Positions 28,707 through 64,000 of a stretch of 64,000 nucleotides of DNA are shown piece after piece; positions within the stretch are counted from its first letter, which is position 1; each line of letters starts with the position of its first letter. The notes beneath the pieces are model-generated. The model ran no database searches. It was given only the letters and a program-made list of their open reading frames with translations, and had not been told where the DNA came from. The position numbers and the translations under genes are program-made. The DNA comes from Paenibacillus sp. HW567 (GTDB taxonomy: Bacteria > Bacillota > Bacilli > Paenibacillales > Paenibacillaceae). Location: assembly GCF_000374185.1 (NCBI RefSeq), contig NZ_KB910518.1:1858162-1922161 (forward strand), written 5' to 3'.

Positions 28707-28715
28707 GCGGAGACA

Positions 28716-29888: not shown

Positions 29889-29918
29889 CAGGTCACTATA
29901 TGGAAGAGGATGCTAACC

Positions 29919-44401: not shown

Positions 44402-44538
44402 AACGAAAATCGGATATTACGTAAATCGCAACAAGCAGTTGTAAAAAGCCGCCCGGAGTTCCCTTTGATTATTAAAGGAGGGGCATGCTGTCGTAATCAT
44501 AGTTTTTGTTCATCACTAAAAAAGTAAGGGGATGCATG

Positions 44539-47500: not shown

Positions 47501-50500
47501 TTACGGTGGAGGCAACGGCAATTCGCTCGATTGTTGATCTTGGCGAGCCAACCGTAACAGATTTGTTCAAAACCACTGTGATTAATGACGCTCCGGATGA
47601 TTTTCCGGTAGGCACGACAAAGGTAACGTGGATGGCTAAGGACACAAGCGGCAATGTGGCAATCGGCACACAGAATGTAACGGTTGTCGATACCACCGAT
47701 CCCGTGCTCCATGTGCCTGCAGATATCAGAATTGAAGCAACGGCTGTAAGATCGCCTGTAGTCATTGGACAAGCAACGGCGACAGATATTTTCCCGGTCA
47801 AGGTAACAAGCAATGCTCCGGCGGATTATCCGGTGGGAACAACCGAGGTTACCTGGACCGCTACGGATGCCAATGGCAGAGTATCGAAGGAGATTCAAAA
47901 AATTGTTGTAGTCGATACAACGCTTCCGGTGCTTAAGGTACCTGCGGATATCAGCGTAGAGGCTACAGCGGTAAATACACCTGTCAATATTGGCAAGGCG
48001 ACTGCTACGGATCTGTTCCCGGTGAACATTACAAGCAATGCTCCGGCCAGCTTCCCGCTGGGCAAGACGATTGTGACCTGGAAAGCTACAGATGCGAACG
48101 GCAATGTCAGCAACGAAACACAGACGATTACTGTAGTAGATACAACAGCGCCGGTTATAGCAGACACACCGGACCTTACGATTGAAGCAACTGGCAAGGA
48201 AACAGCGGTAGCGCTGACACCTCCGGCAGCCACGGATATTTTCGGCGTAAGCGAAATTACGAGTAATGCTCCGGCTAAATTCACGATTGGAGTTACAGAG
48301 GTCATCTGGACAGCCAAGGATGAGAATGGAAACATCTCTACCCGCAAGCAAAAGGTCACGGTAGCTGATACGACCAAGCCTGTACTGACCGTTCCAAAGG
48401 ATGTAAAAGTGGAAGCTACGGCGGTCAAGACCCCTGTAGAGATTGGACAGGCTGAAGCTACAGATCTATTCAAAGTGACCATTACCAGCAACGCACCGAA
48501 GGATTATCCGCTGGGTACAACAGAGGTCATCTGGACGGCGAAGGATGAGAACGGCAATGTATCCACAGGCGTGCAGAAGATTACGGTAGTGGATACGACG
48601 AAGCCGGTATTGACCGTGCCGAAGGATATTCAAGTGGAAGCCACGGCGGTGAAGACCCCTGTAGAGATTGGACAGGCTACAGCGGCGGATATTTTCAAAG
48701 TTGACATCACCAGCAATGCTAAGGATTCTTATCCGTTAGGCACAACAGAGGTTCTTTGGACCGCGACAGATGCAAACGGCAATGTATCCACTGGAATCCA
48801 AAAGATCACGGTAGTGGATACATCGAGACCGGTGCTGATTGTGCCGAAGGATCTGACGGTGGAAGCTACAGCAGTGAAGACCCCTGTAGAGATTGGGATG
48901 GCTACAGCGTCGGATATTTTCAAATACATGATTATGAACAATGCCCCTGAAAGCTATCCGCTGGGTATAACTGAAGTCGTCTGGACGGCGAAGGATGAGA
49001 ACGGCAATGAGAGCACTGGCGTACAGAAGATTACGGTAGTGGATACAACAAAGCCTGTTCTGACCGTGCCGAAGGATGTTACGGTAGAAGCAACTGCTGT
49101 GAGAACCCCTGTGGAGATTGGACAGGCGGCAGCAACGGATATTTTCAAATTCAATATTACGAGCAATGCTCCTGCGGATTATCCGCTGGGTATAACTGAA
49201 GTCGTCTGGACGGCGAAGGATGAGAACGGCAACGTGTCCACCGGTGTGCAGAAGATCACGGTAGTGGATACGACCAAGCCTGTTCTGACCGTGCCGAAGG
49301 ATCTGACCGTAGAAGCGACGGCCGTGAAGACTCCGGTGGAGATTGGACAAGCGGCGGCAACGGATATTTTCAAAGTAACTGTAACCAGCAACGCTCCGGA
49401 AGCTTATCCGCTGGGTATAACTGAAGTCGTCTGGACCTCAAGGGATGAGAACGGCAATGTATCCATCGGCGTGCAGAAGGTGACGGTTACGGATACAACC
49501 AATCCATTGCTGAAATTCAAAGGCTCGCTCCATATCACTCAGGAGGCTTCCGCGCTGGCAACACCTGTAGAACTGGAAGTACCTGGAGTACAGGAAATTT
49601 TCCCGTACACTTTAACAACCGATGCGCCAGGGTTCGGCGGCAAGGGACCGATCACTTCCGGGGAGACTCTTACAGCTAAATTCCCAATCGGAACGACAAA
49701 AGTGACCTGGACCGCCGAAGATGCCAACGGAAATGTCATGATTGGCATTGTGACAGTAACTATTACGGATACCGTCAAGCCTGTACTGAGGCTTCCGGCA
49801 GATATCACACTGGAAGCCACAGCAGTCAAAACACCTGTTGAGATTGGTAAAGCAACAGCGACAGATATCTTTGACGTAACCGTAGAGAGCGATGCCCCGG
49901 CAGAGTTTGCTCTGGGCACAACGGAAGTCACCTGGACGGCTACAGATGCGAACGGCAATGTAAGCACTGGCGTGCAGAAGATCACGGTAGTGGATACGAC
50001 GAAGCCGGGACTGACGCTGCCAGCCGACAAGACCGTCGAAGCGACTGCGCTGAAGACTCCGGTGGATATCGGAGAAGCGAAGGGCACAGACATTTTCAAA
50101 GTCACCGTAACCAGCAACGCTCCGGCAGATTATGCGCTGGGTACAACGGAAGTAAAATGGACAGCTACCGATGAGAATGGCAATGTGACCACAGGCGTGC
50201 AGAAGATCACGGTAGTGGATACAACGAAGCCAGCTTTAGAGCTTCCAGCGGATAAAACCGTAGAAGCAACTGCGCTGAAAACTCCGGTGGATATCGGAGA
50301 AGCGAAGGGCACAGACATTTTCAAAGTCACCGTAACCAGCAACGCTCCGGCAGATTATGCGCTGGGTACAACCGAAGTAAAATGGACGGCTACCGATGAG
50401 AATGGCAATGTGACCACAGGCGTGCAGAAGATCACGGTAGTGGATACAACGAAGCCAGCTTTAGAGCTTCCAGCGGATAAAACCGTCGAAGCGACTGCGC

Positions 50501-51924: not shown

Positions 51925-52191
51925 ATGCCAGATGACATGAATGAAATATTACAACGGTTGACCCGCGTAGAAACAAAGCTCGACATTATGAACTCCGCAA
52001 GGGATATTGCGCTTGAGGCGATGCAGAGCACCAAATCGGCACATCTGCGCATAGATGAGATGCGGGATGAGCTGGCCAGATTGAAGGTTCGGCAAGGTGA
52101 GAACCAGCGGTGGCTGGTAGGAACCATTATCAGCAGTGTGGGATTATTTATTGCGGCTGCAGGGCTTTTACTGAAAATAATGCTTGGATAA
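51925..52191 (+). CDS. XhlA-like hemolysin/phage coiled-coil membrane protein
   Basis: An 88-residue protein: an N-terminal coiled coil (EILQRLTRVETKLDIM with heptads) followed by one membrane helix (WLVGTIISSVGLFIAAAGLL) and a short tail. This is the build of XhlA of the PBSX defective prophage, an accessory to holin-mediated lysis. No XhlB-type holin or endolysin gene is next to it. ATG 51925 follows GGGGG. Its position just before an eCIS locus suggests a role in membrane attachment or release of that particle, but this is inference. Confidence 0.75.
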   Translation: MPDDMNEILQRLTRVETKLDIMNSARDIALEAMQSTKSAHLRIDEMRDELARLKVRQGENQRWLVGTIISSVGLFIAAAGLLLKIMLG

Positions 52192-52427: not shown

Positions 52428-55400
52428 TTGCAGACTCAGGTAAAGGTGAGCAAGGAAAAGGAACAGACTTCCGTTCATCATAAACCATACAGCTATGAGC
52501 AGACGTATAGGAAGCCAGCGGCTGCGCGGCAGCCGGACCCGGTGGAAATTATCCGGCGTATCCGCAAGAACCCGGCTTCGTTGACGCGGGAGGATCAGAT
52601 GGCGCTTCAGCGGACCCTGGGCAACCGCGCGGTGGTTCAGTTGTTATCCGAGCTGAAAAAGAACGGCAAGAAAGAGGAAAAGACGGGTAGCGAGGCTGAA
52701 GTGAAGCAGGAGGGACCGGGAGGTCAGGAGAAGGCCGGTGAGGTTCAGGAGGTTCAAGGGGGAGAGGCGGCTCTAGCTGCACAATCCGAATCTGAACAAC
52801 TTGAACAACCCATACAACCCGCACAGTTAGAAGAAGCACCGGTGGTTCAGGTGGAACCGGCAAATGAGGCGCAGTCGCAGGTGCGGCAGACTCAGAGTGT
52901 GGCAGCAGCGGCTGCGAAACAGAGCAGCGCTGTTCTTGAGCAGCAGCCGAGCCAGAAGGCGAAGCCAAGCGAGAAAATAAAGGGAATTCTAAAGAAGAAT
53001 CTGCTGGAAAGCCCTGTAAAGGGGAAAGCTTCGGCTGGCAGCGTAGAAGGCGCTGGGAAATCGACTGCTGGGCAAACGGGTGGAGAAGAAAAAGCTATAG
53101 CGGCTCAGAAGAAGGACGCAGGGGCTGCTTCCAAGGCTACGGGCGGCGGGAATGAACCAGCGGCCGAGCCGGCTGAAGTGCAGTCAGCGGATGAGAAGGA
53201 CGGCAAGGCTGGCGGAGACGCAAAGGACAGCAAGGAAGCTGAGGGTGCTAAGGGAAGCAAGGACGCTAGGGAAACCGAGGAAGGCAAGGCTGGAAAAGGG
53301 ACCAACGGCGCTAAGGACGCCTCGGAGAAAGCAAGAAAAGCCGAGCAAGCCGCGTCAAAGGAGCCTTCACTGGGAGCCGCTCTCGGCGCCATAGCCGGGG
53401 ACGGCAAGGAAACCCCGGCCAAGGCCAAGAAGGTCAATATCCGCGGCGAAGATCCGGGGCAGATCCTGGACCAGTTGACTCAAGTCCAGCCTACTCAGAT
53501 GGGGGATGCCTATGCCCAGGCTGTTGACGTTTCCGCAGGAGCTTTTGCGAAGCAGAAGCAAAAGGCGAAGCAGTCCCTCCCGGTCATTCCCGCACCGACC
53601 GGACTGAAAGGGAAGGTGCTGCAAGCCCGGAGAAAGCCGGTGCCGCTGAAGCACGCTGCTCCAGAGAGCTATAAGAGCGAACGGTCCGGGGGAGCTGCAG
53701 CTCCGGGGAACCTCGAACGCATGAACATCGGCTCCTCCGGCCCAGAGGAAAACCCCGAAGCCATCATGAGCGAAATCCGTTCCGCCGCAGCCCAGCCGCC
53801 CGGCATCAGCATGACCGGCGAAGCCGATCCTTCCCAAGTGGAGGGCTTCAGCCGAGAAGCCACGCAGCAAGTAGGCGCAGCGAAGCAAGCGGAGATGGGC
53901 CAGATCAGCACCCCGTTCGGTGAGAATGATATCTTCCCCGAACCGGATGGCTCGACCCTGAAGGCAAACGCAGAGCTGCAAGGCGGCAATGCTCCTTCTG
54001 CCAAAAAGCTGCCGGGCCTCGCCATCCCGGGCGAGATGACCGCAGGCCTGAACAAGACGCTGGCCCCGGAAATGAACAAGCAGCTCGGTGCCAAGCAGGC
54101 CGAATACAGCAAGGAAAAAGAAAAATTCGACAGCAAAGTCATGCTCTCCAAAGCGGATAGCCACTCGCAAATCCAGAAGGCCGAAGCTGAAGCCAAAGAG
54201 CAGCAGCTCAGCCAGCAGGCCGGAGCCAAGGCCGAAGTGAATGCCCTGCGCGGCGAGTGGAAAAGCGAACTGGATGCCGCCGAAGCCGACTATGCCGGAC
54301 AAGCCGGAGCCGCAGCCCAGCAGAAGAAAAGCGAAATCAACACCGTGCGCACCGAAAAGGAACGCGAAGCCCAAAAGCGGCAGTCCGAAGCCGAACAAGA
54401 AGCCACAACCGCCTACAGCAAAGCCAAAAAAGAGGCTGACGGCAAACATCAAGAGGAAAAAGCCAAAGAAGAGAAAAAAGGCGGCTTCCTCGGCTGGGTG
54501 AAGAACAAGCTCGAAGCGGTAGTCGAAGTCGTCAAGAAAGCCGTCAACTTCATTTTCGAGGGTCTGAGAAAAGCGGTGAAGTTTATTTTTGAAAAAGCAA
54601 AGCAAGCCGTGCTGGGCATTATTGAGCTGGGCCGCAAGCTGATCACCACCCTGATCAAAGGCTTAGGCACCCTGCTCAAAAAGCTGGTCTCCGTCGTGTT
54701 CGCCAAATTCCCGGGTATCGCCGCCAAGATTTGCAGCAAAATTGACGGCGTAGTGAACAAAGCGGTCAAAGCCGTCAACCAGCTCGCGCAGAAGCTCAAA
54801 ACGAAAGTCACCCAGGTTATGGACTTCTTGGCAAGCAAAGTGGATCAGGCCTTGGCGGTTGTGCAGAACTTCTACACGAAACTAATCTCCACCATAGGCA
54901 ACCTCCTGATCGCTGTTTTCCTCGATGTGATGGAACGGATCGGGGCGCTCGGCAAGGCAGCGAAGCGGTCGTTCAGCCATTTGGAAGGCAAGATGTGGGA
55001 GTATCTGCTCGGTGTGGACATTTCGAAGCCGCTGGGCGCAGGTGCCGCAGAAGGCGGAGCAGAGCAGGAACAGGAAGCGGGAGAACCGCAGCCGGAAGAG
55101 AAGCTTACCGCAGACGACATCGAAATGGAGTCGGTCGAAGAGGGAGAAATGGACCCTGAGCTGGTTCAGGACATGAACCTCAAGGACGGCGAAACCAAGC
55201 AGCTTCCGGGCAGCAGCGATCCGCATACGATGGAGAGCATCATGGAGGATTTTGATACCGGAAAAGCGAACCAAAGCCTCGGCGGCAAAATCGCAGACGG
55301 CGTGTCGCTGCGGGCGAACAATGCCAAAATGGTGTTTGACCAGATCAAAACATATGTAATAAAATGGATGAAAGCTCATGGATTACAGCTCTTGGCCGCC

Positions 55401-56546
55401 ATTGTAGGAATACTGGTCGGCGTTGTGGCTGCGGAAATTCTCACAGGCGGAGCGGTCACGGCTTTTCTTCCGGTCCTGATGAATATTGTCATGACCGTCA
55501 TGGAAGCGCAGGCGATTGTATCCGTGGCGCAAACCCTCGCACAGGCCTCGGGCTATATCGGCACGTACCTGAGCCAAGGCTGGCAGAAGCTGATCGAACC
55601 GGCGGCTATTGCGCTGGCAACAGCGCTGGCGATGGGGCTGGTGGAGCTGGCGATGGAGCTGGGCTTCAAGGGCCTCGGCAAGGGACTCAAGAAGGCCGGA
55701 CAAGCCGTGAAGAAGGGCGCAGCAGCAACCGCCAAAGGCGTGAAGGCAGTCGCGGGCGCAGGAGCCAAGGGCATCAAGAGTCTGCTCAAAACTGGAGCCA
55801 AACTAGCCTCCAAGAGCGGCAGCATGATCATCCGCAATGGCAAAATCGTGATCAAGAGCCTGCAAAAAGGGTTCATGAAGGGGGCTAAGAAGCTCCAAGC
55901 TCTGCTTGGCCGGATTCTTGCGAAGTTTAAGTTCAAGAAGTTTAAGCTGGAGCGCAAGGGTAGGCATATCCTTCTTTACGGAGAGGTTAATCCTTGGGTG
56001 CTGCTGGCTAAGGGGGAAATTGAAGAAGTCGATAGTCTGGAAGGCAGAAAAGCAGGAATCAGCACCCAGGCTGAACTCGATAAGATCAAGAGCTTGACGG
56101 ATGCCCAAAGAGTAGACGTCTATAATAAAGCCGTTGCTAGCAAAGACGGTAAGATTGATTTTGATAGTATAAAGGCGCCTGAAAGTAAGAAGAAAACTAG
56201 GTGGCAATATATAACAGAGTGGCATGATAAAAGGGTCTCAGAGTTATTCGGGAATGAAAATGGTAGAAGGGTTAAGGATGCTGGGCGAAATTATGATGCA
56301 CGTTATAAAGGAAAGGATATAGAATTTAAATCAGATAATTTTAGCAAAGGACCCAGAACACAGTCAGAAATATCGCGTATGGAAGGACAGATAAATAAAG
56401 ATATAGAACTTTTCAATTCAGGAGAAGCAAATCCACATTGGCATTTTGATCATGATCCGACAGTGTCACCTGAAATGAAGCCTTTACTTGATAAATTAAC
56501 AAGCGCAGGTATACCTTGGACATTTGGTCCCAAAAAACCATTTTAG
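52428..56546 (+). CDS. eCIS-associated polymorphic toxin-like cargo protein, nuclease tip
   Basis: A 1372-residue protein. LQRTLGNRAVVQLL at residues 60-73 is the motif found near the N-terminus of many eCIS cargo proteins. A Gln/Ala/Lys low-complexity region spans ~90-330; a conserved-looking part starts IRGEDPGQILDQLTQ (~338). A charged coiled coil (~545-685) is followed by amphipathic helices (~690-845), membrane-like helices (~985-1080), and a pre-toxin linker with YGEVNPWVLLAKGEIEEV (~1185). The tip (~1255-1372) has Asp1290, Glu1299-Phe-Lys1301 and WHFDHDP, which resembles a PD-(D/E)XK nuclease. No signal peptide is seen. The start is TTG 52428, seven bases after GAGGGGGG. The tip DNA becomes AT-rich from ~56.1 kb. 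A possible immunity gene starts 18 bp later. Alternative: a tape-measure-like or contact-toxin protein, less likely. Confidence 0.72.
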   Translation: MQTQVKVSKEKEQTSVHHKPYSYEQTYRKPAAARQPDPVEIIRRIRKNPASLTREDQMALQRTLGNRAVVQLLSELKKNGKKEEKTGSEAEVKQEGPGGQEKAGEVQEVQGGEAALAAQSESEQLEQPIQPAQLEEAPVVQVEPANEAQSQVRQTQSVAAAAAKQSSAVLEQQPSQKAKPSEKIKGILKKNLLESPVKGKASAGSVEGAGKSTAGQTGGEEKAIAAQKKDAGAASKATGGGNEPAAEPAEVQSADEKDGKAGGDAKDSKEAEGAKGSKDARETEEGKAGKGTNGAKDASEKARKAEQAASKEPSLGAALGAIAGDGKETPAKAKKVNIRGEDPGQILDQLTQVQPTQMGDAYAQAVDVSAGAFAKQKQKAKQSLPVIPAPTGLKGKVLQARRKPVPLKHAAPESYKSERSGGAAAPGNLERMNIGSSGPEENPEAIMSEIRSAAAQPPGISMTGEADPSQVEGFSREATQQVGAAKQAEMGQISTPFGENDIFPEPDGSTLKANAELQGGNAPSAKKLPGLAIPGEMTAGLNKTLAPEMNKQLGAKQAEYSKEKEKFDSKVMLSKADSHSQIQKAEAEAKEQQLSQQAGAKAEVNALRGEWKSELDAAEADYAGQAGAAAQQKKSEINTVRTEKEREAQKRQSEAEQEATTAYSKAKKEADGKHQEEKAKEEKKGGFLGWVKNKLEAVVEVVKKAVNFIFEGLRKAVKFIFEKAKQAVLGIIELGRKLITTLIKGLGTLLKKLVSVVFAKFPGIAAKICSKIDGVVNKAVKAVNQLAQKLKTKVTQVMDFLASKVDQALAVVQNFYTKLISTIGNLLIAVFLDVMERIGALGKAAKRSFSHLEGKMWEYLLGVDISKPLGAGAAEGGAEQEQEAGEPQPEEKLTADDIEMESVEEGEMDPELVQDMNLKDGETKQLPGSSDPHTMESIMEDFDTGKANQSLGGKIADGVSLRANNAKMVFDQIKTYVIKWMKAHGLQLLAAIVGILVGVVAAEILTGGAVTAFLPVLMNIVMTVMEAQAIVSVAQTLAQASGYIGTYLSQGWQKLIEPAAIALATALAMGLVELAMELGFKGLGKGLKKAGQAVKKGAAATAKGVKAVAGAGAKGIKSLLKTGAKLASKSGSMIIRNGKIVIKSLQKGFMKGAKKLQALLGRILAKFKFKKFKLERKGRHILLYGEVNPWVLLAKGEIEEVDSLEGRKAGISTQAELDKIKSLTDAQRVDVYNKAVASKDGKIDFDSIKAPESKKKTRWQYITEWHDKRVSELFGNENGRRVKDAGRNYDARYKGKDIEFKSDNFSKGPRTQSEISRMEGQINKDIELFNSGEANPHWHFDHDPTVSPEMKPLLDKLTSAGIPWTFGPKKPF

Positions 56547-56563
56547 ATAATTGGAGGATCACT

Positions 56564-57226
56564 ATGGGGCAAACTTTTAGTAAGGATATGGAAGAAACAC
56601 TTGGTGTAACTGTTGCAGCGGCAGGGTTCAAAGTAACTCCACCATTAATTTCTGAAGGTGATTATTGTGTATTTGTAAAACGCTATAATGAAAAAATTGC
56701 GCTATATATTAAGTGTACGGATAATCGAGCGAAAGGGGGCGACGTGGTTATAGCTCTCTGGATAGCACCGGTCGAATTTCCTGACGATAGAATAGAAGTC
56801 CTTAATATTGGATTTAAGATCGTTGTTTATTCCGACTATGAAGTCTCTGATGAAATCATATACTCAGTGGGACAAAAACTTGTTGAACTAAGTAGCAATA
56901 TAACAAGTTTAGCTTTCTCAGTAGAGAGGGATATGGCTAATCCATTCATAGTAAATAAACGCACAAAATTCTATTTCTATTCAAGGGAGATGTACAATAA
57001 ACTTTGTTCAGCTAAAGAATTTTCGGAAGCATTTGAAGAATTGAAATCTTTAGCTAGAAAATGTATAGATAACAATGCATCATTTGATAAATTGAAGGTT
57101 CAATGTACTTCATTTATTGATAAATTAGGGGAGGATTATTTCACCGATGCACTATCATCTTTGAAATCTCAAGAAAAAGGCAGGTTACTAGCTTGTGTTT
57201 TATATGCAGAAATGTTGATACAATAA
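56564..57226 (+). CDS. Possible cognate immunity protein of the nuclease tip
   Basis: A 220-residue protein with no recognised family, with alternating strands (CVFVKRYNEKIALYIKC) in the first half and helices in the second. It begins at ATG 56564, seven bases after GGAGG and only 18 bp after the toxin stop. This is the place where the specific immunity gene of a polymorphic toxin is expected. AT-rich like its neighbours. A terminator follows at 57343. If the tip is a nuclease, this protein should bind and block it in the producing cell. Confidence 0.55.
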   Translation: MGQTFSKDMEETLGVTVAAAGFKVTPPLISEGDYCVFVKRYNEKIALYIKCTDNRAKGGDVVIALWIAPVEFPDDRIEVLNIGFKIVVYSDYEVSDEIIYSVGQKLVELSSNITSLAFSVERDMANPFIVNKRTKFYFYSREMYNKLCSAKEFSEAFEELKSLARKCIDNNASFDKLKVQCTSFIDKLGEDYFTDALSSLKSQEKGRLLACVLYAEMLIQ

Positions 57227-57342
57227 TTATCTGAACGAAAATTTGAATAGGGAATTTCATCAAAAGAAGGATCTATAAAGTGATAACAGAAAGTGTGAAG
57301 ATATGGATATGAAAGTTAAATAATTGCTATGTTACGTAAGTC

Positions 57343-57384
57343 AGGTTGATTGTGGTGGGATGTACCATGATCGACCTATTTTTT
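57343..57384 (+). terminator. Terminator after first immunity candidate
   Basis: AGGTTGATTGTGGT (57343-57356) pairs with ACCATGATCGACCT (57364-57377) using some G-U pairs, followed by ATTTTTT. Confidence 0.7.
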
Positions 57385-57422
57385 GTTAACATCGTTTGCT
57401 TCAAAACTAGTTTTCATGTTAG

Positions 57423-57485
57423 TCGAAGCAGCTTGAATGCGGCGGCAAGAAACCGATCAGCCTTAGCGAAAAGGATAAATTTTCC
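57423..57485 (+). other. GC-richer in-frame scrap before the SUKH gene
   Basis: An open stretch after a TAG (57420) reads QLECGGKKPISLSEKDKFS and continues in frame into the SUKH gene without its own start. It is richer in G and C than the flanks and could be the leftover C-terminus of an older toxin tip that once preceded this immunity gene. Confidence 0.25.
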
Positions 57486-58154
57486 ATGATGGTGGATGAC
57501 TCAATTGAAGAATTGAAAAAACGTTTATTAGCATTGAGGATCACTGCAAAAGATAATAAAAATCATAATTCGGCGATTATTGAAAGAATAGAAGAGAAGT
57601 ATGATTTAGTTCTTCCAGAATTGTACAAGCACTTTATGGTGTATGGAGATTGCAATCTTAATGAATCTCTTCAGTATCAAACTATTGAAAGAACACCATG
57701 GTCTGACCAGAATAATACTGAATCAATTGGGTCATTCTTTACTACTGGCGCCGGAGTTAATAATCTTGAAAAAAGTATACAGCAATACTATGAAAGAATT
57801 CCTGGATCAATTTTACCGATAGCCAATGATTCTGCCGGTAACCTAATATGTATTGGGGTAAGTGGCGAAGCTAGCGGAAAAATTTACTTTTGGGATCATG
57901 AGAATGAGCTTACAGCTAAGGTTATGTTGGATGAAGCTCCATCAGGTAGTATAACAATTGATAATTATTGGGATAACATTTATTTAGTTGCAAATTCTTT
58001 TATTGAATTCATCAGGAGTTTGCAGGTCAAGGAAGAGAAAGTAATAAGCGATATTAATTCTAAAATTGCTAGTATAAATATTAGTGATGATTTTATGGAG
58101 AAAATGAGATTAGCAAGGGAAAGATTAGAGTCAAAAGAAAGAGGAGGAGAATAA
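57486..58154 (+). CDS. SUKH (SMI1/KNR4)-family immunity protein
   Basis: A 222-residue protein with SUKH superfamily marks: IERIEEKYDLVLPELYKHFM at the N-terminus, then PGSILPIANDSAGNLICIGV and GKIYFWDHENE, and a helix WDNIYLVANSFIEFIRSL at the end. SUKH proteins are common immunity factors of nuclease-type polymorphic toxins. A charged C-terminal tail of ~35 residues (KEEKVISDIN to end) is additional. ATG 57486 follows AAAAGGA. It is not beside a matching toxin tip here, so it may be an orphan immunity gene. Confidence 0.82.
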   Translation: MMVDDSIEELKKRLLALRITAKDNKNHNSAIIERIEEKYDLVLPELYKHFMVYGDCNLNESLQYQTIERTPWSDQNNTESIGSFFTTGAGVNNLEKSIQQYYERIPGSILPIANDSAGNLICIGVSGEASGKIYFWDHENELTAKVMLDEAPSGSITIDNYWDNIYLVANSFIEFIRSLQVKEEKVISDINSKIASINISDDFMEKMRLARERLESKERGGE

Positions 58155-58234
58155 ATCGTAAGTGAAAACTCATTCAGCCAGTGTTGATAACATGTAACAG
58201 TAAGAGTTGTAAGTTTATCTGGATCAAATATAGA

Positions 58235-58282
58235 AACCAGCAAGTCTCAGACATCTGAAGAGATTTGCTGGTTTTGGTTTTA
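58235..58282 (+). terminator. Terminator after SUKH gene
   Basis: AACCAGCAA(G)TCTC (58235-58248) pairs with AGAGATTTGCTGGTT (58259-58273), followed by TTGGTTTTATTTT. Confidence 0.7.
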
Positions 58283-58362
58283 TTTTGAGCCAAGGGTAAC
58301 TGTAAAATCGTGATTAAGAGCTTTGATATTAGTTTACCCTAATGAAAGGAGGTTGTTTTTTA

Positions 58363-58767
58363 ATGAGCTCAGAAGAATTTCTTCCTACTAATGAGATAAT
58401 TGAAGCTATAATAAAAAATTCGATTAACCCTATTCTTATACAACTAGAAAATGACATTGGAGAACTTAAGTATAGATGTTCTGTTTATGTCGATGATAAC
58501 GAAATGAGTTCGCAAATATTGGGATTTTCTAAAACGGACATTTCTAATGAAAACTCACAACCAATACGATTGAGATTCAGACCAGCATTTAGTGCTAATC
58601 AACTAAAATTTCAAGTCCAAGCCGTATTTTCACAAGATGTTTCTCCTCAAGGAACAGGTTTTTCCGGCTTTTGGACAAAGGGGAAAATTAATACTGATAA
58701 TTTTATAGTAAAGAAATCACCCTGGGTAGCACAGTATAATGTTTGGAAATGGAGAGGATGGAAATAA
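58363..58767 (+). CDS. Unknown protein in the immunity array
   Basis: A 134-residue protein with helical start (EFLPTNEIIEAIIKNSI) and beta-rich remainder with several Trp near the end (SPWVAQYNVWKWRGWK). No family recognised. ATG 58363 stands 11 bases after AGGAGG; an in-frame ATG at 58342 is just before that site. Its AT-rich DNA, small size, and position point to an orphan immunity protein, but the end with basic and Trp residues could also be a piece of another module. Confidence 0.5.
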   Translation: MSSEEFLPTNEIIEAIIKNSINPILIQLENDIGELKYRCSVYVDDNEMSSQILGFSKTDISNENSQPIRLRFRPAFSANQLKFQVQAVFSQDVSPQGTGFSGFWTKGKINTDNFIVKKSPWVAQYNVWKWRGWK

Positions 58768-58848
58768 GTTAGTTAGAAAATGCACGTTTGAGATTTTGAG
58801 CGAATTGATGTTGTAGAACTAATAAAAGTTGACTAGGAGACGGTAAAG

Positions 58849-59082
58849 GTGGACCCTGTTCAAAAAATAGATCCGGTTATTGAAAAGCTTATAGATGGTT
58901 TAAGTCCATACCTTCAGTCCTTAGGATTTGTTTACAACAAAAAAAGAAACTTCCTAAGAAAGCTGGAAGAGTGCGATCAAGGACTTAGTGTGCAGTTCCG
59001 TCGTATCAAAGGTGAAGAAGCAGGCTATCTTGAAGTTTGTCCAAATGTTATTTTTGAAAAAAGGGTAGACCCGATGAGGTGA
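58849..59082 (+). CDS. Short DUF4304-like fragment in the immunity array
   Basis: A 77-residue product from GTG 58849 after GGAGACGG. The pattern PVIEKLIDGLSPYLQSLGF followed by NFLRKL and LSVQFRRIKGEE looks like the first half of the DUF4304-type proteins, which are found as immunity-like genes. Those are about twice as long, so the gene has likely lost its 3' half; it stops right after VIFEKRVDPMR. No continuation of the family is visible in the 64 bp before the next gene. May be a pseudogene. Confidence 0.45.
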   Translation: MDPVQKIDPVIEKLIDGLSPYLQSLGFVYNKKRNFLRKLEECDQGLSVQFRRIKGEEAGYLEVCPNVIFEKRVDPMR

Positions 59083-59146
59083 CGGTCCAACAATGTCTAT
59101 TTAAAATTAATAATCTTGACTTAAACTCCATAGTAGGAGGGAAAAA

Positions 59147-59542
59147 ATGATATTCGAATCAGAAAATGGCCACCGTATAGAAAATATTCAGAAGAATGAA
59201 CTTTTAAGCTGCTTACGAAAAATAAATGGAACTTCTAATTCTTATGCGGTATTAGAAACAGGGGAGGGTAATTATATCCAAGTTGGCGGTGGTCCGGTAG
59301 AATATACCGTTGAGATCAGGAAGATGCTTCAAGATGCAGAATTCTCTCATTGGAAGGCCAGAAAAATAAATGTTGAAAATGAGGGGATAAAAAAAATAAT
59401 AATTTCAGGTTCAGTGGTTGATGTTAAGTCGAATCAAGTCATAGACCTGGATACGGTTTTAAAGTTATTTGATGCTTATTTTGATGGACAACCTTTACCA
59501 TTATCTACAGAATGGGATGATATTACGAATATGTTTTTGTGA
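59147..59542 (+). CDS. Imm1-like possible immunity protein
   Basis: A 131-residue protein: AVLETGEGNYIQVGGGPVEY in the first half and an end DAYFDGQPLPLSTEWDDI. The closing pattern of an aromatic helix, Gly, Leu-Pro and Trp with acidic residues is like the Imm1 immunity family and some other toxin-immunity folds. The match is by eye and weak. ATG 59147 follows AGGAGGG. AT-rich, same strand as the other array genes. Confidence 0.5.
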   Translation: MIFESENGHRIENIQKNELLSCLRKINGTSNSYAVLETGEGNYIQVGGGPVEYTVEIRKMLQDAEFSHWKARKINVENEGIKKIIISGSVVDVKSNQVIDLDTVLKLFDAYFDGQPLPLSTEWDDITNMFL

Positions 59543-59574
59543 ATTTTTTAAGTGATCTTTTGTTACTAGCGAGG

Positions 59575-59643
59575 TGCACCTCATAAAGTTGATATTGGAG
59601 TAGGCTCTTGTTTAATCCAGTCAATTCTGTGAGGTGCATTTTT
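59575..59643 (+). terminator. Inverted repeat with T-run after Imm1-like gene
   Basis: TGCACCTCA (59575-59583) and TGAGGTGCA (59630-59638) are perfect inverse copies 46 bp apart, followed by TTTTTA. Could be a terminator with a long loop or the ends of a deleted cassette. Confidence 0.4.
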
Positions 59644-59727
59644 ATAGCCAACAGGGCAGAAAAAGGGGTTAAGAAAGGCAAGAAAGCTATAGTAGGTGCG
59701 AGTGGTATAAGGAGGTTGGAGCACCCT

Positions 59728-60147
59728 ATGAAAAACATAAATGATTCGCTCAAAGTCTTAGAAGAATGTTTATTTAAGATTGGTCTACCACCTAGAGAAA
59801 TAAACTATTCTGAAGAGGGAATTACGGAAATTGAGGAGAAATATCACATTTCGCTTCCGGATTTTTGGTATCACGAAAATGAATTAATTGCAAACCTAAT
59901 GCTAAATGAGAAGAAATACAGAAACGTTAGTTTAGATGATTATTGGGATAATGTCTTTTTAATATCAGATAATTTTCTTGATTTTATAAAAAGTTTTCAA
60001 GTTGAAGAGGAAAAAGAACAACAAGACGTTGGATTGAAAATTGTAAGTGAAAGAATGAATGCTGACTTCATGGCTAATATGCTAGCCGCAAGAGCAGAGC
60101 TGGAAGCCGAAGAAAACGCAAGAAAAGATAAGAAGAAGCGGAAGTGA
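59728..60147 (+). pseudogene. SUKH immunity gene with a large internal deletion
   Basis: A 139-residue frame, ATG 59728 after GGAG. It begins like a SUKH protein (EGITEIEEKYHISLPDF) and then jumps directly into WYHENELIANLMLNEKKY and DDYWDNVFLISDNFLDFIKS, which equals the end of the intact SUKH protein at 57486 (WDHENELTAKVM; DNYWDNIYLVANSFIEFI). About 80 residues between LPDF and the HENEL part are missing, in frame. A charged tail like that of the first SUKH protein remains. It is probably a decayed paralogue; a shortened but expressed product cannot be excluded. Confidence 0.6.
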
Positions 60148-60171
60148 TTTTGCATAAAAAAGATGAGCAAA

Positions 60172-60220
60172 ACAGGTCGATTACAGTCCAAAGACTGAAT
60201 AATCGGCCTGTCTTTTTTTC
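60172..60220 (+). terminator. Strong terminator closing the immunity array
   Basis: ACAGGTCGATTA (60172-60183) pairs with TAATCGGCCTGT (60200-60211, one G-U), extended by CAGTC/GACTG, then CTTTTTTT. Its stem resembles the one at 57343-57377 (AGGTTGAT / ATCGACCT). Confidence 0.88.
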
Positions 60221-60327
60221 CTCTTCTAACTCTCCCCAAATTTCCTCCCTCATCCAGTTGTAAACCCCCACCCCAAACTTACTTTATATATGAACGAGAA
60301 AATATAGAGTGAGGACATAAACGGGCG

Positions 60328-62772
60328 ATGAAATTTAAAAAACTTGCCAGAACCTTTCGTCAGGAAACGCCGAAAGCCGAGTATGTGGAAGGCGAAGCAG
60401 CAGCCACTTTGAAGCAAGATTCTACGCAAGCTAGGAATGTGGAGCTAGCGCTGGGCCTGAGCGTTGAACACGCTCTGGATCAGGCAAATGAACAGGCTGC
60501 GAATCCTGCGGCTGAACCCGCTCCTGATGCGGCCAATGCAAGCAAGGCAGCGGACTCAACGTCCGCTCGTTCCCCGGTTCCCGATGCTGCTTCCGAAGCC
60601 GAGGCGGACGAGGCGGTCCAGCCCTACACCTCCAGCCATGAGCATCTGGCGGAGGAGTTGCGGCGGCTGAATTTGCAGCTTCTGCTGCAAATGCTTGCGA
60701 AGCCGCAGATGGACGCCGAGCTGGTCCTGTTGGACAGTGAGATCCGTTGTCTGCTGGATGCTGAGGTAACAGGGGAGGAGGATGCCAGTCTCCTGACTGC
60801 AAAGCTCGGCCTGCTGGAGCTGCGCATCGCAGCCAGGCTGGAGGCTAGCAGCCAGCAAGGAATCAAGCTGCCGCTTGTGCAATTGGCAGCCAGGCTGAAT
60901 CTGTCGCAACTCGAAATGCGGTGCATTATCGCTTGTCTTGCCCCTGAGCTGGACCGGAGGTATGAGCGCATTTACGCTTTTCTGCAGAATGATATGTCGG
61001 ATATGCGTCCTTCTGTGGATTTTATCCTGCAATTGTTTACTCAGACGGAGGAAGAGCGGCTCGCGGCCCGTCTGCTGTTCGGCGCCGATGCGCCATTGAT
61101 GAAGCTCCTGCTGGAACGGAGGGGGGAATACGGCGACAGCCGCATCCCGCTTCTTGCCAGACTGCTCAAGCTGGAGGATTGGACGGTGAATGCGCTGCTG
61201 GGTTATGAGGTGCTCGATGAACGTCTGGCGAAGGTGGCCGGCCTCTATCCCCCAGAGCTCCCGGAGCAGACGGGGCAGCCGGATGAAACGGAGCAGAGCA
61301 TGCTCCGGTTTGTGAAGCACTACAGCGGCAGGATGGAACGAAGGAGCGGCAGCCTCCTGTACTGCAGCGGGCCGGATGAAGCCGGGAAGCTTCGCTCGGT
61401 CAAGGCGGTCAGCGTCCGGCTTGGCGCTTCGCTGCTGGTGGTCGAGATGGACAAGCTGCTGCAACCGGAGGCGGATTACAGCGAAATGCTGCGGCTGCTG
61501 GGAAGGCACACTCTTCTTATAACAACAGCATTGTGTATTACGGGCTTTGACAGCATCGCAACTGAGGATGACCGCTACAAGCTGAAAAGCCGGATGCTGG
61601 TGGACATGCTGGAGACTTATGCGCCGCTGACTTTCATCCTTGGAGAGTCGGAGTGGGGAATGAGCTTGACCGGATACAGTCTGAATTTCATCCAGGTTGA
61701 TTTTCCATTCCCGGATGCTGCGGCCCGCAAGCAGGCTTGGGCAACCTTCAGTCAGGATTACAGGCTGTCTCCGCAGATCAGCATGGAGGATCTCAGCGGC
61801 AGCTTCCGCTTTACCTCCGGGCAGATCCGGGCCGCGTTGACCGGAGGCGAGAACATCGCCGTCTGGAACGGCTCCGGCAGCGGGGAGATTAGCCCGAAGG
61901 AGCTGTACCAGGCGTGCTACTTCCAATCCAGCCGCAAGATTCAGGCGCTGGCCACGAAGATCCGTGCGGCCTATACCTGGGACATGCTGGTGCTTCCGGG
62001 CGAGCAGATGAGCCAATTGCGGGAGATTTGCAACCAGGTGAAGTACCGCTCGCTGGTCTATGGAGAGTGGGGCTTCGCGGGACGTTTGTCACTTGGCAAG
62101 GGGCTGAACATTCTGTTTTCCGGCCCGCCGGGGTCGGGGAAGACAATGGCTGCGGAGGTAATCGCAACGGAGCTGAACCTGGAAATCTACAAAATTGATG
62201 TTTCGCAGATTGTGAGCAAGTATATCGGGGAGACGGAGAAGAATCTTTCGCGGATTTTTGAGGAAGCGGAAACCTCCAATGCGATTCTCTTCTTTGATGA
62301 GGCGGATGCCTTGTTCGGCAAACGCTCCGAGGTCAAGGATGCGCATGACCGGTATGCGAATGTGGAGATCAGCTACCTGCTGCAGAAGATGGAGGAGTAT
62401 ACGGGAATCGTCATTCTGGCTACGAATCTCAATCAGAACCTGGATGATGCCTTTGCGCGCAGGCTGCATTTCAAGCTGGAGTTCCCGTTCCCGGAAAAGA
62501 ACCAGCGCGGGCTGATCTGGCGGGGCATGTTCCCGCAGGGAGCGCCGCTTGATCCTGACATGGATTACGATTTCATGGCGGACAAGTTCATCCTTGCCGG
62601 AGGCAATATCAAGAATATTGCGCTGAACGCGGCCTTTTATGCTGCGCATGAGGGCTGCCCCATCGGGATGAAGCAGATCATGCTTGCAGCCAAACGGGAA
62701 TATCTCAAGCTGGGCAAAACCTTTTTGCAATCCGATTATGCCCCCTACCACAAACTGATCGAGGTGAAATAA
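60328..62772 (+). CDS. AAA+ ATPase of an extracellular contractile injection system
   Basis: An 814-residue ATPase. The first ~110 residues are Ala/Glu-rich; a helical domain with winged-helix-like repeats follows (~110-550; VQLAARLNLSQLEMRCII). The AAA+ core has Walker A FSGPPGSGKTMAAEV (~596-610), Walker B AILFFDEADALFG (~652-664), sensor-1 ILATNLNQNLDDAF and arginine pair ARR. This is the architecture of the AAA protein encoded by almost all eCIS loci (Afp15/Pvc15-like), thought to help assembly or cargo loading. ATG 60328 has only a weak upstream GAGG. It is 2 bp from the DUF4255 gene, so they form an operon. GC content returns to normal here after the AT-rich array. Confidence 0.85.
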   Translation: MKFKKLARTFRQETPKAEYVEGEAAATLKQDSTQARNVELALGLSVEHALDQANEQAANPAAEPAPDAANASKAADSTSARSPVPDAASEAEADEAVQPYTSSHEHLAEELRRLNLQLLLQMLAKPQMDAELVLLDSEIRCLLDAEVTGEEDASLLTAKLGLLELRIAARLEASSQQGIKLPLVQLAARLNLSQLEMRCIIACLAPELDRRYERIYAFLQNDMSDMRPSVDFILQLFTQTEEERLAARLLFGADAPLMKLLLERRGEYGDSRIPLLARLLKLEDWTVNALLGYEVLDERLAKVAGLYPPELPEQTGQPDETEQSMLRFVKHYSGRMERRSGSLLYCSGPDEAGKLRSVKAVSVRLGASLLVVEMDKLLQPEADYSEMLRLLGRHTLLITTALCITGFDSIATEDDRYKLKSRMLVDMLETYAPLTFILGESEWGMSLTGYSLNFIQVDFPFPDAAARKQAWATFSQDYRLSPQISMEDLSGSFRFTSGQIRAALTGGENIAVWNGSGSGEISPKELYQACYFQSSRKIQALATKIRAAYTWDMLVLPGEQMSQLREICNQVKYRSLVYGEWGFAGRLSLGKGLNILFSGPPGSGKTMAAEVIATELNLEIYKIDVSQIVSKYIGETEKNLSRIFEEAETSNAILFFDEADALFGKRSEVKDAHDRYANVEISYLLQKMEEYTGIVILATNLNQNLDDAFARRLHFKLEFPFPEKNQRGLIWRGMFPQGAPLDPDMDYDFMADKFILAGGNIKNIALNAAFYAAHEGCPIGMKQIMLAAKREYLKLGKTFLQSDYAPYHKLIEVK

Positions 62773-62774
62773 GC

Positions 62775-63347
62775 ATGGCCGTGGATACCGGTACGGTAAT
62801 AAGAGATGTCAGCACCAGCCTCAAGGCTCTGCTGAAGGCACATGTGCCGGAGTTGAATGACGACAGCTTCATCAGCTTCGGCTCACCAAGCGACATTGAC
62901 AGCTCAACGATGAAGCTCTCGATGTGCTTGTACTATTTAAGCCACAGCCCCAGCATGCGCAACAGTGAGAAGGAAGAGATCAGCGGCACGAACGAGTTCC
63001 ATTACCCGCCTGCCTATCTCGATTTGTATTATCTGCTCACCCCGTATGCCAAGGACAGAGAGACGGAGCAGCTCATTCTGGGCAGAATTTTTCAACTGTT
63101 TCATGAGCACCCGGTGCTCAGCGGAACGGATCTGACCGGCAACCTTGCCGCATGCGGCAACGAGAAAATCAGGATATCCTACAACAATCTCACGATTCAG
63201 GATATCAAGCAGCTCTGGGAGGTTTTTCCCGGCAAGCCTGCCAAGGTCAGCCTGTCCTATCTGGTGTCACCGGTAAGGCTGCCGGCTGACAAGACTATCA
63301 AGATTCCGCGGGTTCAGGTAAAGGATCTGGGCATCCACCCCATTTAA
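62775..63347 (+). CDS. DUF4255 (Pvc16/Afp16-type) tail terminator protein
   Basis: A 190-residue protein of the Pvc16 N-terminal/DUF4255 family: VIRDVSTSLKALLKAHVPEL at the N-terminus, PPAYLDLYYLLTPYAKDRE in the middle, and PGKPAKVSLSYLVSPVRL near the end. In eCIS particles this protein caps the tube and sheath and fixes their length. It starts two bases after the stop of the AAA gene (TAAGCATG). No other eCIS gene lies between it and the sheath gene, apart from the 312-bp repeat region. Confidence 0.85.
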   Translation: MAVDTGTVIRDVSTSLKALLKAHVPELNDDSFISFGSPSDIDSSTMKLSMCLYYLSHSPSMRNSEKEEISGTNEFHYPPAYLDLYYLLTPYAKDRETEQLILGRIFQLFHEHPVLSGTDLTGNLAACGNEKIRISYNNLTIQDIKQLWEVFPGKPAKVSLSYLVSPVRLPADKTIKIPRVQVKDLGIHPI

Positions 63348-63386
63348 ATAGAATGGCCCAGGCTTCTTCTTTGAAGGGAGTGATTC

Positions 63387-63449
63387 ATGGAAGGAATAAG
63401 CTCATCTGCAAGGCAACCCGAATCAGCGGATATTCCGCAAAAATTCTAG
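63387..63449 (+). other. 20-residue leader-like open frame before the repeats
   Basis: ATG 63387 behind GAAGGGAG encodes MEGISSSARQPESADIPQKF and stops at the TAG that starts the first 67-bp repeat. It may be a leader peptide, a former gene start cut by the repeat, or chance. Confidence 0.25.
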
Positions 63450-63650
63450 CGTATGCTTCCGAAGCTAGTTTTGTACGAAGACAGTTCATGGAGGCATGTG
63501 CTAACAAAACTTTTAGCGTATGCTTCCGAAGCTAGTTTTGTACGAAGACAATTCATGGAGGCATGTGCTAACAAAACTTTTAGCGTATGCTTTCGAAGTG
63601 ATTTTTGTACGAAGCGGAATCCGTGAAGTAATGCTAACAAAAATTTAGGA
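63447..63650 (+). repeat. Three tandem 67-bp repeats before the sheath gene
   Basis: Units begin at 63447, 63514 and 63581. The first two differ by only a couple of bases (ACAGTTC/ACAATTC); the third is diverged in its second half. Each has the palindrome GCTTCCGAAGC and an AGTTTTGT ... ACAAAACT inverted pair, so each can fold into a hairpin. They fill most of the 312-bp gap inside an operon; ordinary genes are absent. Confidence 0.85.
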
Positions 63651-63659
63651 GGGTAAGAG

Positions 63660-64000
63660 ATGGCAAATTATTCATCGCCAGGAGTGTATGTAGAGGAAGT
63701 CTCAAGCGGTGTCAAGCCGATTGCCGGCGTGGGCACATCTGTGGGGGCTTTTGTAGGGATTGCGGAGAAAGGTGTGATCGGCAAAGCGGTGCTGGTCACG
63801 AACTGGAGCCAATTCGTAAGCGAGTTCGGCCAATTTATTCCGAATGGCTATCTGGCCTATGCGGTGTATAACTTTTTCGCCGAAGGAGGCACCTCCTGCT
63901 ATGTGGTAAGAGCGGCAGCTAAAGATATTCAGCCAGCTTCCCTTACGATCAGAGATACAGACAACCTGGATCTGTTCAAGGTGGTTGCACGCTCCGAGGG
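63660..64000 (+). CDS. Contractile tail sheath protein, 3' part outside window
   Basis: The first 113 codons of a phage-tail-sheath-family protein. ATG 63660 follows AGGAGGG. It opens MANYSSPGVYVEEVSSGVKP and continues with IAGVGTSVGAFVGIAEKG, then NGYLAYAVYNFFAEGGTSCY, all typical of the N-terminal region of eCIS and myovirus sheath proteins. The sheath forms the contracting outer tube. The gene runs off the window, so its length and the presence of a second sheath gene cannot be judged. Confidence 0.92.
   Translation, partial: MANYSSPGVYVEEVSSGVKPIAGVGTSVGAFVGIAEKGVIGKAVLVTNWSQFVSEFGQFIPNGYLAYAVYNFFAEGGTSCYVVRAAAKDIQPASLTIRDTDNLDLFKVVARSE

What the first reader, a model, noticed from the sequence alone, without database searches (positions are those of the whole stretch)
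52428..64000. Start of an extracellular contractile injection system locus in a spore-forming Gram-positive
A cargo-like protein with LQRTLGN motif, an Afp15-type AAA+ ATPase, a DUF4255/Pvc16 protein and a contractile sheath gene lie in a row on one strand, with no capsid, terminase or integrase genes in the window. eCIS loci are known from established work (Afp, PVC, MAC and others), yet Gram-positive examples and their cargo are little studied. The gene order, with the AAA and terminator genes before the sheath, and the cargo plus immunity genes at the 5' edge, is worth describing.
Basis: partly seen in the sequence, partly recalled or inferred. Interest (0 to 1): 0.88.

Follow-up and report, generated by a model that had tools for sequence, protein, structure and literature searches.

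The report
Injection machine with swappable toxin payloads
This spore-forming bacterium carries a complete phage-tail-like injection machine whose large payload protein keeps one constant body but varies its toxic tip, with spare tips and antidote genes stored nearby, which would explain how such machines could change weapons without harming their owner.

Summary
Confirmed: the locus is a complete eCIS. Past the window's end come tube, CIS_tube, hub, spike, PAAR, gp25, two baseplate-J proteins, Tail_P2_I and two fibre-like genes; three phage head families are absent from the whole genome.

The novelty is the cargo at 52428-56546. It is one of four copies in this genome (backbone 98% identical), two of them far from the eCIS, each ending in a different toxin-like domain. 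In 394 family genomes the backbone occurs strongly in 17, all with the eCIS gene pvc16 (present in 60 of the other 377), and those 17 lack the usual eCIS_core/DUF4157 domain that 43 of those 60 have. Truncated spare tip/immunity cassettes lie beside it. Thirty-eight C-termini fall into about 17 families, many of them nucleases; tips and downstream genes travel together. Backbones are homogenised within genomes while tips differ. In one pair of close genomes a tip differs at the same site, with the other genome's matching downstream gene retained. An N-terminal LQxxxGNxA motif is shared with most eCIS_core ORFs examined.

Best reading: a polymorphic, probably antibacterial eCIS payload system with stored immunity. 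New variant of a known kind; delivery, toxicity and protection are inferred.

The parts
51925..52191 (+). XhlA-like holin gene (88 aa), candidate lysis/release gene
   Evidence: PHROG 689 holin E=2.6e-11; Pfam XhlA E=1.3e-4, below its cut-off; present at 86-93% identity beside an eCIS-linked or contig-end cargo copy in 13 other genomes
52428..56546 (+). Cargo 1: 1372-aa polymorphic effector (constant backbone + variable C-terminal tip); TTG start
   Evidence: copies and relatives; conserved start
52605..52631 (+). N-terminal LQxxxGNxA motif (LQRTLGNRA)
   Evidence: pattern shared with 23 of 30 eCIS_core ORFs
55368..55664 (+). Hydrophobic stretch of the backbone, candidate membrane-translocation segment
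   Evidence: hydropathy only
55977..56006 (+). YGEVNPWVLL boundary motif, after which identity between copies collapses
56187..56546 (+). C-terminal tip of cargo 1 (119 aa), presumed toxin, no Pfam family
   Evidence: 80% identical to a spare tip in G091; those 2 of 394 family genomes only; no Pfam or NCBIfam toxin family
56516..57226 (+). Presumed cognate immunity gene (236 aa), overlapping the tip's 3' end by 28 coding bases
   Evidence: 65.5% identical to the gene behind the G091 copy of the same tip, with the same overlap
57486..58154 (+). Orphan SUKH immunity gene (222 aa) with no toxin found in front
   Evidence: PF09346 E=5e-14; 47% to the gene paired with a G066 tip
58342..58767 (+). 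Small gene (141 aa) in the A+T-rich immunity cluster, unknown
   Evidence: no Pfam match
59147..59542 (+). Small gene (131 aa) in the A+T-rich immunity cluster, unknown
   Evidence: no Pfam match
59608..60147 (+). Partial SUKH-type immunity gene
   Evidence: two partial matches to the G066/G083 immunity family; weak Imm43 below cut-off
60328..62772 (+). AAA+ ATPase, Afp15/Pvc15 type (814 aa)
   Evidence: PF22977 E=8e-48, PF00004 E=7e-32
62775..63347 (+). Pvc16/DUF4255 protein, tail-terminator-like
   Evidence: PF14065 E=2e-39
63660..64000 (+). Contractile sheath gene (continues to genome C1:1923359)
   Evidence: PF17482, PF04984; PHROG 23 tail sheath E=3e-62

Best explanation
The locus encodes a complete extracellular contractile injection system whose payload is a polymorphic toxin. 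Shown by sequence: a constant ~1200-residue backbone (N-terminal LQxxxGNxA motif, a hydrophobic stretch) carries a variable C-terminal tip, often a nuclease, followed by a matching gene. Several genomes hold two to four copies whose backbones are homogenised but whose tips differ. Truncated spare tip/immunity cassettes and orphan immunity genes lie next to them. Inferred: the polar N-terminus with its motif is the loading tag read by the AAA+ ATPase, in place of the DUF4157/eCIS_core domain that much other eCIS cargo carries. The particle is loaded, released by lysis (XhlA-like holin, in most relatives with a glycoside-hydrolase-like gene), binds other bacteria through its fibres, and injects the cargo. 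The hydrophobic segment helps the tip across the membrane. The gene behind each tip protects the maker and its kin. Homologous recombination in the shared backbone and linker swaps tips between expressed and spare copies; the old immunity gene is kept, giving an archive of resistance to relatives' payloads.
For: eCIS core present; no portal, HK97-type capsid or TerL in the genome. Association: strong backbone hits in 17 of 394 family genomes, all 17 with pvc16, which 77 of 394 have (Fisher p=2e-13; 1e-10 with the 3 weak hits). eCIS_core in 0 of those 17 but 43 of the other 60 pvc16 genomes. Four copies in this genome; identity collapses just after GEVNPWVLL. 38 C-termini, 36 over 110 aa, 17 single-linkage families; of 35 scanned, 10 match WHH, 9 Colicin-DNase (models overlap), 4 Endonuclea_NS_2, others HNH types. 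Of 40 tip-related pairs among 35 cassettes 26 are also related in the downstream gene, 2.1 expected, 0 of 10,000 permutations. Of 35 downstream genes, 10 match SUKH-1, 3 YezG-like, 1 each Imm47, Imm25, SUKH-4. Concerted evolution: paralogues 98.1/97.8 and 99.3/99.2% versus orthologues 96.6/95.2 and 97.1/96.7%, flanks syntenic. Tip difference at one site with the matching downstream gene retained. Tips A+T-rich (0.37 G+C against 0.56 for the backbone). Pvc15 loads effectors by N-terminal signal peptides (PMC11495950, abstract and passages).
Against: No experiment: particle, loading, toxicity and immunity are untested. The cargo 1 tip has no recognised family and a poor model (pLDDT 63; no PDB fold match at E<=0.001). 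The association is not corrected for shared ancestry: 16 of the 17 genomes are one genus. Four copies have split frames (G082 both, G086, G053 unlinked). 14 of 40 tip-related pairs lack a related downstream gene, one at 70% tip identity, and 6 downstream-related pairs lack a related tip. Reciprocal immunity in G048/G053 holds for the eCIS-linked tips only: for the tips at the unlinked sites no close immunity gene was seen in the other genome's fetched stretches. The glycoside-hydrolase-like gene was not found in this genome. The motif pattern was widened after a first one gave 8 of 30, and the P. macerans cargo has only a variant.
Confidence: 0.75

Rival explanations
1. It is a prophage, or a phage-tail bacteriocin of PBSX/R-type, not an eCIS; the big protein is a tail or tape-measure protein.
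For: An XhlA-like holin gene is of the kind found in PBSX-type lysis modules (recalled); the S74 fibre is phage-like.
Against: AAA+ ATPase with WHD domain and Pvc16 mark the eCIS branch (Pvc16 rings in 0 of 14 control genomes); Phage_portal, Phage_capsid and TerL_ATPase absent from the whole genome (other capsid families not searched); the cargo varies in nuclease-type tips with immunity-type genes and also occurs far from the tail genes.
Confidence: 0.03
2. The machine is intracellular, as described for Streptomyces CIS: it acts inside the producer in cell death or development, and the toxins act on the producer.
For: Gram-positive, spore-forming host (gerA operon at 27189-31016); Streptomyces CIS papers seen as listings with the start of their abstracts.
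Against: Two large fibre-like genes (one with S74; the other by eye), lysis-type genes beside the cargo in most relatives and matching downstream genes behind most tips examined point to release and to protection of kin; retained orphan immunity genes make little sense for suicide toxins.
Confidence: 0.12
3. The payload is aimed at eukaryotes (amoebae, nematodes, insects); immunity genes only protect the producer while the toxin is being made.
For: Four eCISs are known to mediate interactions with invertebrate hosts (PMC8213781, abstract); nucleases would harm any cell; a Paenibacillus fibre grafted on PVC bound human cells (PMC12923769, abstract and passages).
Against: Many tip alleles, reciprocal immunity genes for the eCIS-linked tips of two close genomes, and stored immunity genes fit competition among related bacteria better; a P. 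jilunlii eCIS toxin inhibited E. coli but not yeast (PMC8213781, table passage).
Confidence: 0.2
4. The copies and cassettes are passive leftovers of duplication and decay; there is no ongoing tip exchange or selection for stored immunity.
For: Sixteen of 38 tips are truncated spare pieces and 4 copies have split frames; an IS630-like element sits in one cassette in this genome.
Against: The same tip is fused in one genome and spare in another (for example cargo 1's tip in G091); paralogue backbones are more alike than orthologues; intact immunity genes stand behind toxin remnants at 10 of 66 sites and with no toxin at 8, whereas a complete toxin with a broken immunity gene was seen once (toxin-only sites are under-counted by that search).
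Confidence: 0.12

Closest known systems
eCIS of Afp/PVC/AlgoCIS type
   Same: Sheath, tube, CIS_tube protein, hub, spike, PAAR, gp25, baseplate J, Tail_P2_I, AAA+ ATPase and Pvc16
   Different: AAA and Pvc16 genes precede the sheath (order in Afp/PVC recalled, not compared here); S74 fibre; cargo lies upstream of the structural genes and at distant sites
PVC-metallopeptidase (DUF4157/eCIS_core) polymorphic toxins of Zhang et al. 2012 (PMC3482391)
   Same: Constant N-terminal part and variable C-terminal toxin with a PVC-type system; LQxxxGNxA motif shared with 23 of 30 eCIS_core ORFs
   Different: No HExxH/eCIS_core domain; matching downstream genes usual, whereas that paper says a notable proportion of PVC-dependent systems lack adjacent immunity genes; homogenised copies and spare cassettes
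CDI/Rhs orphan toxin-immunity modules (PMC3150448, abstract)
   Same: Orphan C-terminal modules with downstream immunity genes; same module orphan in one genome and fused in another
   Different: Platform is an eCIS cargo, not CdiA or Rhs; spare tips keep 50-460 residues in front of the boundary motif
MafB silent cassettes of Neisseria (PMC4287609, passages)
   Same: Spare C-terminal cassettes with immunity genes and a conserved boundary motif
   Different: Secreted MafB versus eCIS cargo; not compared by sequence
eCIS-associated toxins with immunity partners (PMC8213781, PMC11297309, passages)
   Same: Antibacterial eCIS toxins, one from Paenibacillus jilunlii (EAT8); some toxin-immunity pairs
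   Different: There most tested toxins had no immunity gene next to them, named a mystery; here matching downstream genes and stored immunity genes are usual. Whether EAT8 belongs to this backbone was not tested

Membership tests
Extracellular contractile injection system | Sheath, tube, hub, spike/PAAR, gp25 and baseplate genes in one locus | tested here: met
Extracellular contractile injection system | Dedicated AAA+ ATPase (Afp15/Pvc15 type) and Pvc16 | tested here: met
Extracellular contractile injection system | No capsid, portal or terminase genes | tested here: met
   PF04860, PF05065, PF03354: 0 matches in the whole genome, controls ring in 3-4 of 14; 25 of 59 PHROG families printed for 49 nearby proteins, none named as a head family
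Extracellular contractile injection system | Particles released and active outside the cell | not testable with these tools
   Fibre-like and lysis-type genes are suggestive only
DUF4157/eCIS_core cargo (PVC-metallopeptidase toxins) | eCIS_core domain with HExxH | tested here: not met
   No match in the whole genome; no HExxH in cargo 1
DUF4157/eCIS_core cargo (PVC-metallopeptidase toxins) | N-terminal LQxxxGNxA motif (noted here, not a published criterion) | tested here: met
Polymorphic toxin system | Constant N-terminal part with many unrelated C-terminal domains | tested here: met
Polymorphic toxin system | Gene directly downstream that follows the tip family | tested here: met
   (co-inheritance in 26 of 40 pairs; protection itself not tested)
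Polymorphic toxin system | Standalone toxin cassettes nearby | tested here: met
   16 spare tips, some fused elsewhere; recombination itself is inferred
Polymorphic toxin system | Toxicity of the tip and neutralisation by the partner | not testable with these tools
   Needs expression assays

The most novel reading that the evidence does not exclude
In these Paenibacillus an eCIS uses a DUF4157-free cargo chassis kept uniform within each genome by gene conversion between distant copies, while its toxin tips are exchanged with a bank of silent cassettes and the antidotes of discarded or rivals' tips are stored. The eCIS is thus a weapon in warfare among relatives, and a short LQxxxGNxA box, not DUF4157, is the general eCIS cargo address.
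Probability: 0.5. Interest if true: 0.85.

Novelty: new variant of a known kind. Interest (0 to 1): 0.72.

Why it matters
PMC8213781 calls it an intriguing mystery that antibacterial eCIS toxins mostly lack immunity genes. PMC11297309 states that no specific conserved sequence was detected in the loading signal, though PMC11495950 reports that eCIS signal peptides can be grouped by alignment. This family speaks to both points: it has regular tip/downstream-gene pairs and stored immunity genes, and a short N-terminal motif shared by DUF4157-bearing and DUF4157-free cargo. Many natural tips on one backbone would let loading, delivery and kin competition by an eCIS be tested directly.

Tried and rejected
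Prophage or tailocin reading: rejected, see rivals. DUF4157 in the cargo: absent. Structure of the backbone: AlphaFold model useless (pLDDT 37). Structure of the cargo 1 tip: weak model (pLDDT 63), no PDB match at E<=0.001; a PD-(D/E)xK nuclease is only a guess from the recalled D...ExK pattern at residues 37-48. Solved-structure sequence search: two serum-albumin matches at E=0.41, taken as chance. Relatives of the tip in phages and plasmids: none at E<=0.01. A profile of the first 89 residues against other-genus eCIS loci found the P. macerans cargo (two overlapping loci) and only short motif matches elsewhere. A first DNA tree mixed strands and was discarded, then redone. Strict motif LQR..GN was too narrow (8 of 30). 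Outside the family, 3 strong eCIS_core ORFs did not match the pattern; 2 of the 3 show a Q...GNRY variant, seen after the fact.
Full report
Observation. The four items in the finding are real, in the stated order, and far above chance: AAA+ ATPase with WHD domain (PF22977 E=8e-48), Pvc16 (PF14065 E=2e-39), and a contractile sheath (PF17482 E=2e-19).

Beyond the window. The window is C1:1858162-1922161 of a one-contig 6.84-Mb genome. After the sheath come a gp19-type tube (1923383), a small protein resembling a tail assembly chaperone (1923967; PHROG 508), a second gp19-type tube (1924527-1925006), a 517-aa protein of unknown family, a CIS_tube protein, a hub (Phage_GPD), a spike (Phage_base_V), PAAR, gp25, baseplate J (1215 aa), a short J-like protein (Pfam below cut-off, PHROG baseplate wedge E=8e-8), Tail_P2_I, and two large fibre-like proteins of 951 and 1990 aa. 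The 951-aa one has a Peptidase_S74 domain; the 1990-aa one has a similar C-terminus by eye only. Genes of other kinds follow to 1958 kb (TetR, amidohydrolase, esterase and ABC transporter by Pfam for the four of them given). Phage_portal, Phage_capsid and TerL_ATPase have no match anywhere in the genome, while each rings in 3 or 4 of 14 control genomes. A PHROGs scan of 49 nearby proteins printed 25 of 59 families, none named as head. The locus is an eCIS. Such systems in Paenibacillus are in print (PMC8213781 and PMC12923769, passages).

The cargo is a multi-copy family. A search with 565 residues of the backbone found four full-length copies in this genome: cargo 1 (window), cargo 2 (C1:1958230-1962534, about 14 kb beyond the fibre genes), and C1:1440770 and C1:3367425 (98% protein identity over the searched part), plus fragments and one distant relative. 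In 100 genus genomes 16 gave strong hits (E<=3e-82) and 3 weak ones: G026 has remnants only, G050 and G073 a distant relative at 45-46%. The same 16 have pvc16. In 394 family genomes there were 17 strong hits and 3 weak, and pvc16 occurred in 77; all 17 are among the 77 (Fisher p=2e-13; with the weak ones 1e-10). These p-values ignore common descent. In draft genomes G030, G037, G091 and G092 contigs end inside the backbone, as near-identical copies would cause.

It replaces the usual eCIS cargo domain. eCIS_core (PF13699, the former DUF4157) was found in 44 of 394 genomes: 43 of the 60 pvc16 genomes without the backbone, 1 genome without pvc16, 0 of the 17 with the backbone (lists compared; p=5e-8, same caveat). 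Cargo 1 has no HExxH. Yet its N-terminal LQRTLGNRA box is shared: [LMF]Q...GN.A lies N-terminal to the HExxH in 23 of 30 eCIS_core ORFs examined (64 matches were listed; the 30 are those given as loci), against 0.005 per 30 in shuffled sequences and 3 of 329 control ORFs. Those three are cargo 1 itself and two ORFs 8-11 kb from pvc16 in G355, which lacks eCIS_core. The control set left out L113, where two motif ORFs had been seen before, one of them with eCIS_core. The pattern was widened after a narrower one gave 8 of 30, and the 23 hold 19 distinct strings. No paper in the library holds any of six versions of the word.

Polymorphic tips. The four copies in this genome agree up to a YGEVNPWVLL motif and then diverge; two linker types follow before the toxin proper. 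From 15 of the 16 genus genomes 38 C-termini with the motif were found, and 7 hits without it (G092 and G026 gave only such hits; G149 was not included). Of the 38, 15 are on open full-length genes, 4 on copies with split frames, 3 at contig ends, and 16 are spare, with 50-460 residues in front of the motif (the split and contig-end ones were sorted by me). Thirty-six exceed 110 aa and fall into 17 single-linkage families. Of 35 scanned (a 113-aa fragment was left out), 10 match WHH, 9 Colicin-DNase, 4 Endonuclea_NS_2, 3 HNH, and 1 each LHH, Tox-SHH, Tox-GHH and Tox-HNH-HHH (models overlap, and the union is not printed). Cargo 1's own tip matches none. Tips have median G+C 0.37 (0.338-0.429, n=36) against 0.557 for the backbone end (n=20).

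Immunity. The gene behind each tip tends to follow the tip family: of 40 tip-related pairs among 35 cassettes, 26 are related in the downstream gene too; permutation mean 2.1, 0 of 10,000 as high. Fourteen tip-related pairs lack a related partner, one at 70% tip identity, and six partner-related pairs lack a related tip. Three cassettes whose downstream ORF was a transposase or a toxin fragment were dropped beforehand. Of 35 partners, 10 match SUKH-1, 3 YezG-like, and 1 each Imm47, SUKH-4 and Imm25. For cargo 1 the partner is 56516-57226: its G091 homologue (65.5%) stands in the same 28-base overlap behind the same tip (80%), which in G091 is a spare cassette. That tip was seen in those 2 of 394 genomes only.

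Exchange and homogenisation. In G043/G082 and G048/G053, copies near the eCIS and copies about 1 Mb or a contig away lie in syntenic places. Within-genome backbone identities (98.1, 97.8; 99.3, 99.2%) exceed those between the same sites of the two genomes (96.6, 95.2; 97.1, 96.7%), and same-genome copies form clades. Gene conversion is the simplest cause. At the eCIS-linked site of G048 and G053 the flanks are 96-99% identical but the tips differ. G053 carries its own tip and partner (275 aa), then a gene 99% identical to the partner of G048's tip, with no match to that tip there; that G053 lost the tip and kept the gene is the simplest order of events, not proven. G048 in turn holds a 97% copy of G053's partner without a toxin, at its unlinked array. 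For the tips at the unlinked sites no such close match was seen in the other genome's fetched stretches. Of 66 sites with immunity-family genes, 56 are intact: 38 with a toxin of at least 80% length (most of these are the 35 query sites), 10 behind toxin remnants and 8 with no toxin; one complete toxin has a broken partner. Toxin-only sites would be under-counted by this search. The window's 57486-58154 and 59608-60147 are such orphan immunity genes, one intact and one partial.

Release. An 88-aa XhlA-like holin gene (51925-52191; PHROG holin E=3e-11) stands upstream of the cargo in 14 genomes, this one included; it was not found in the stretches fetched for G027, G030 or G149. In 12 genomes a glycoside-hydrolase-like gene (PF08924 in the two scanned, E=2e-28 and 3e-28) lies beside it or, in G149, alone. 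It was not found in this genome nor in the stretches of G091 and G092.

Mechanism. Shown: gene content, copy number, tip diversity, co-inheritance of partners, homogenisation, one site with different tips and a retained partner. Inferred: loading through the N-terminus by the AAA+ ATPase (by analogy with Pvc15, PMC11495950, abstract and passages), lysis release, delivery into bacteria, nuclease activity, protection, and recombination as the route of exchange.

Known and new. Polymorphic toxins of PVC-type systems were described in 2012 with a metallopeptidase domain as their marker and often no adjacent immunity genes (PMC3482391, passages and section 13). Orphan toxin/immunity modules are known for CDI/Rhs (PMC3150448, abstract) and MafB (PMC4287609, passages). 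The listings of searches showed no paper on such modules, homogenised copies or stored immunity for eCIS; I did not read every listed paper, and subscription papers and preprints are not held. Hence: new variant of a known kind.

Noticed in passing
C1:1309975-1314312 (L055); also G050, G073 and five other genomes: A second, distant cargo-like backbone (1445 aa, 46% over about 215 residues); its C-terminus differs between this genome and G050, and two carriers lack pvc16.
   Followed up: partly
C1:1963997-1965126 (L005): An IS630-like pair (HTH_32 and DDE_3) lies inside a spare toxin cassette next to cargo 2; the related tip is on a full-length cargo in G058.
   Followed up: partly
G082 (both copies), G086, G053 unlinked copy: Cargo reading frames are split in these genomes; in G082 both copies are affected, which could be spread by gene conversion or an assembly artefact.
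   Followed up: no
window 44506-51813: A 2435-aa secreted-looking protein of many near-identical repeats (HYR-like by eye) lies upstream of the eCIS; similar repeat ORFs lie upstream of the eCIS-linked cargo in G048, G086 and G149 (by eye).
   Followed up: no
C1:1933404-1933661 (L003:11405-11662): A stretch without a called gene between the two baseplate-J genes contains ...GGAGCGTTAGCGTCCGCC..., which looks like a dispersed repeat.
   Followed up: no
C1:1925006-1926559 (L003:3007-4560): A 517-aa proline- and leucine-rich protein with no Pfam or PHROG family sits between the second tube and the CIS_tube gene; it may be the tape measure, otherwise not identified.
   Followed up: no
G355:C1:2344373-2348063 (L106): Two ORFs 8-11 kb from pvc16 carry the LQxxxGNxA motif without eCIS_core, so they may be further DUF4157-free eCIS cargo.
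   Followed up: partly
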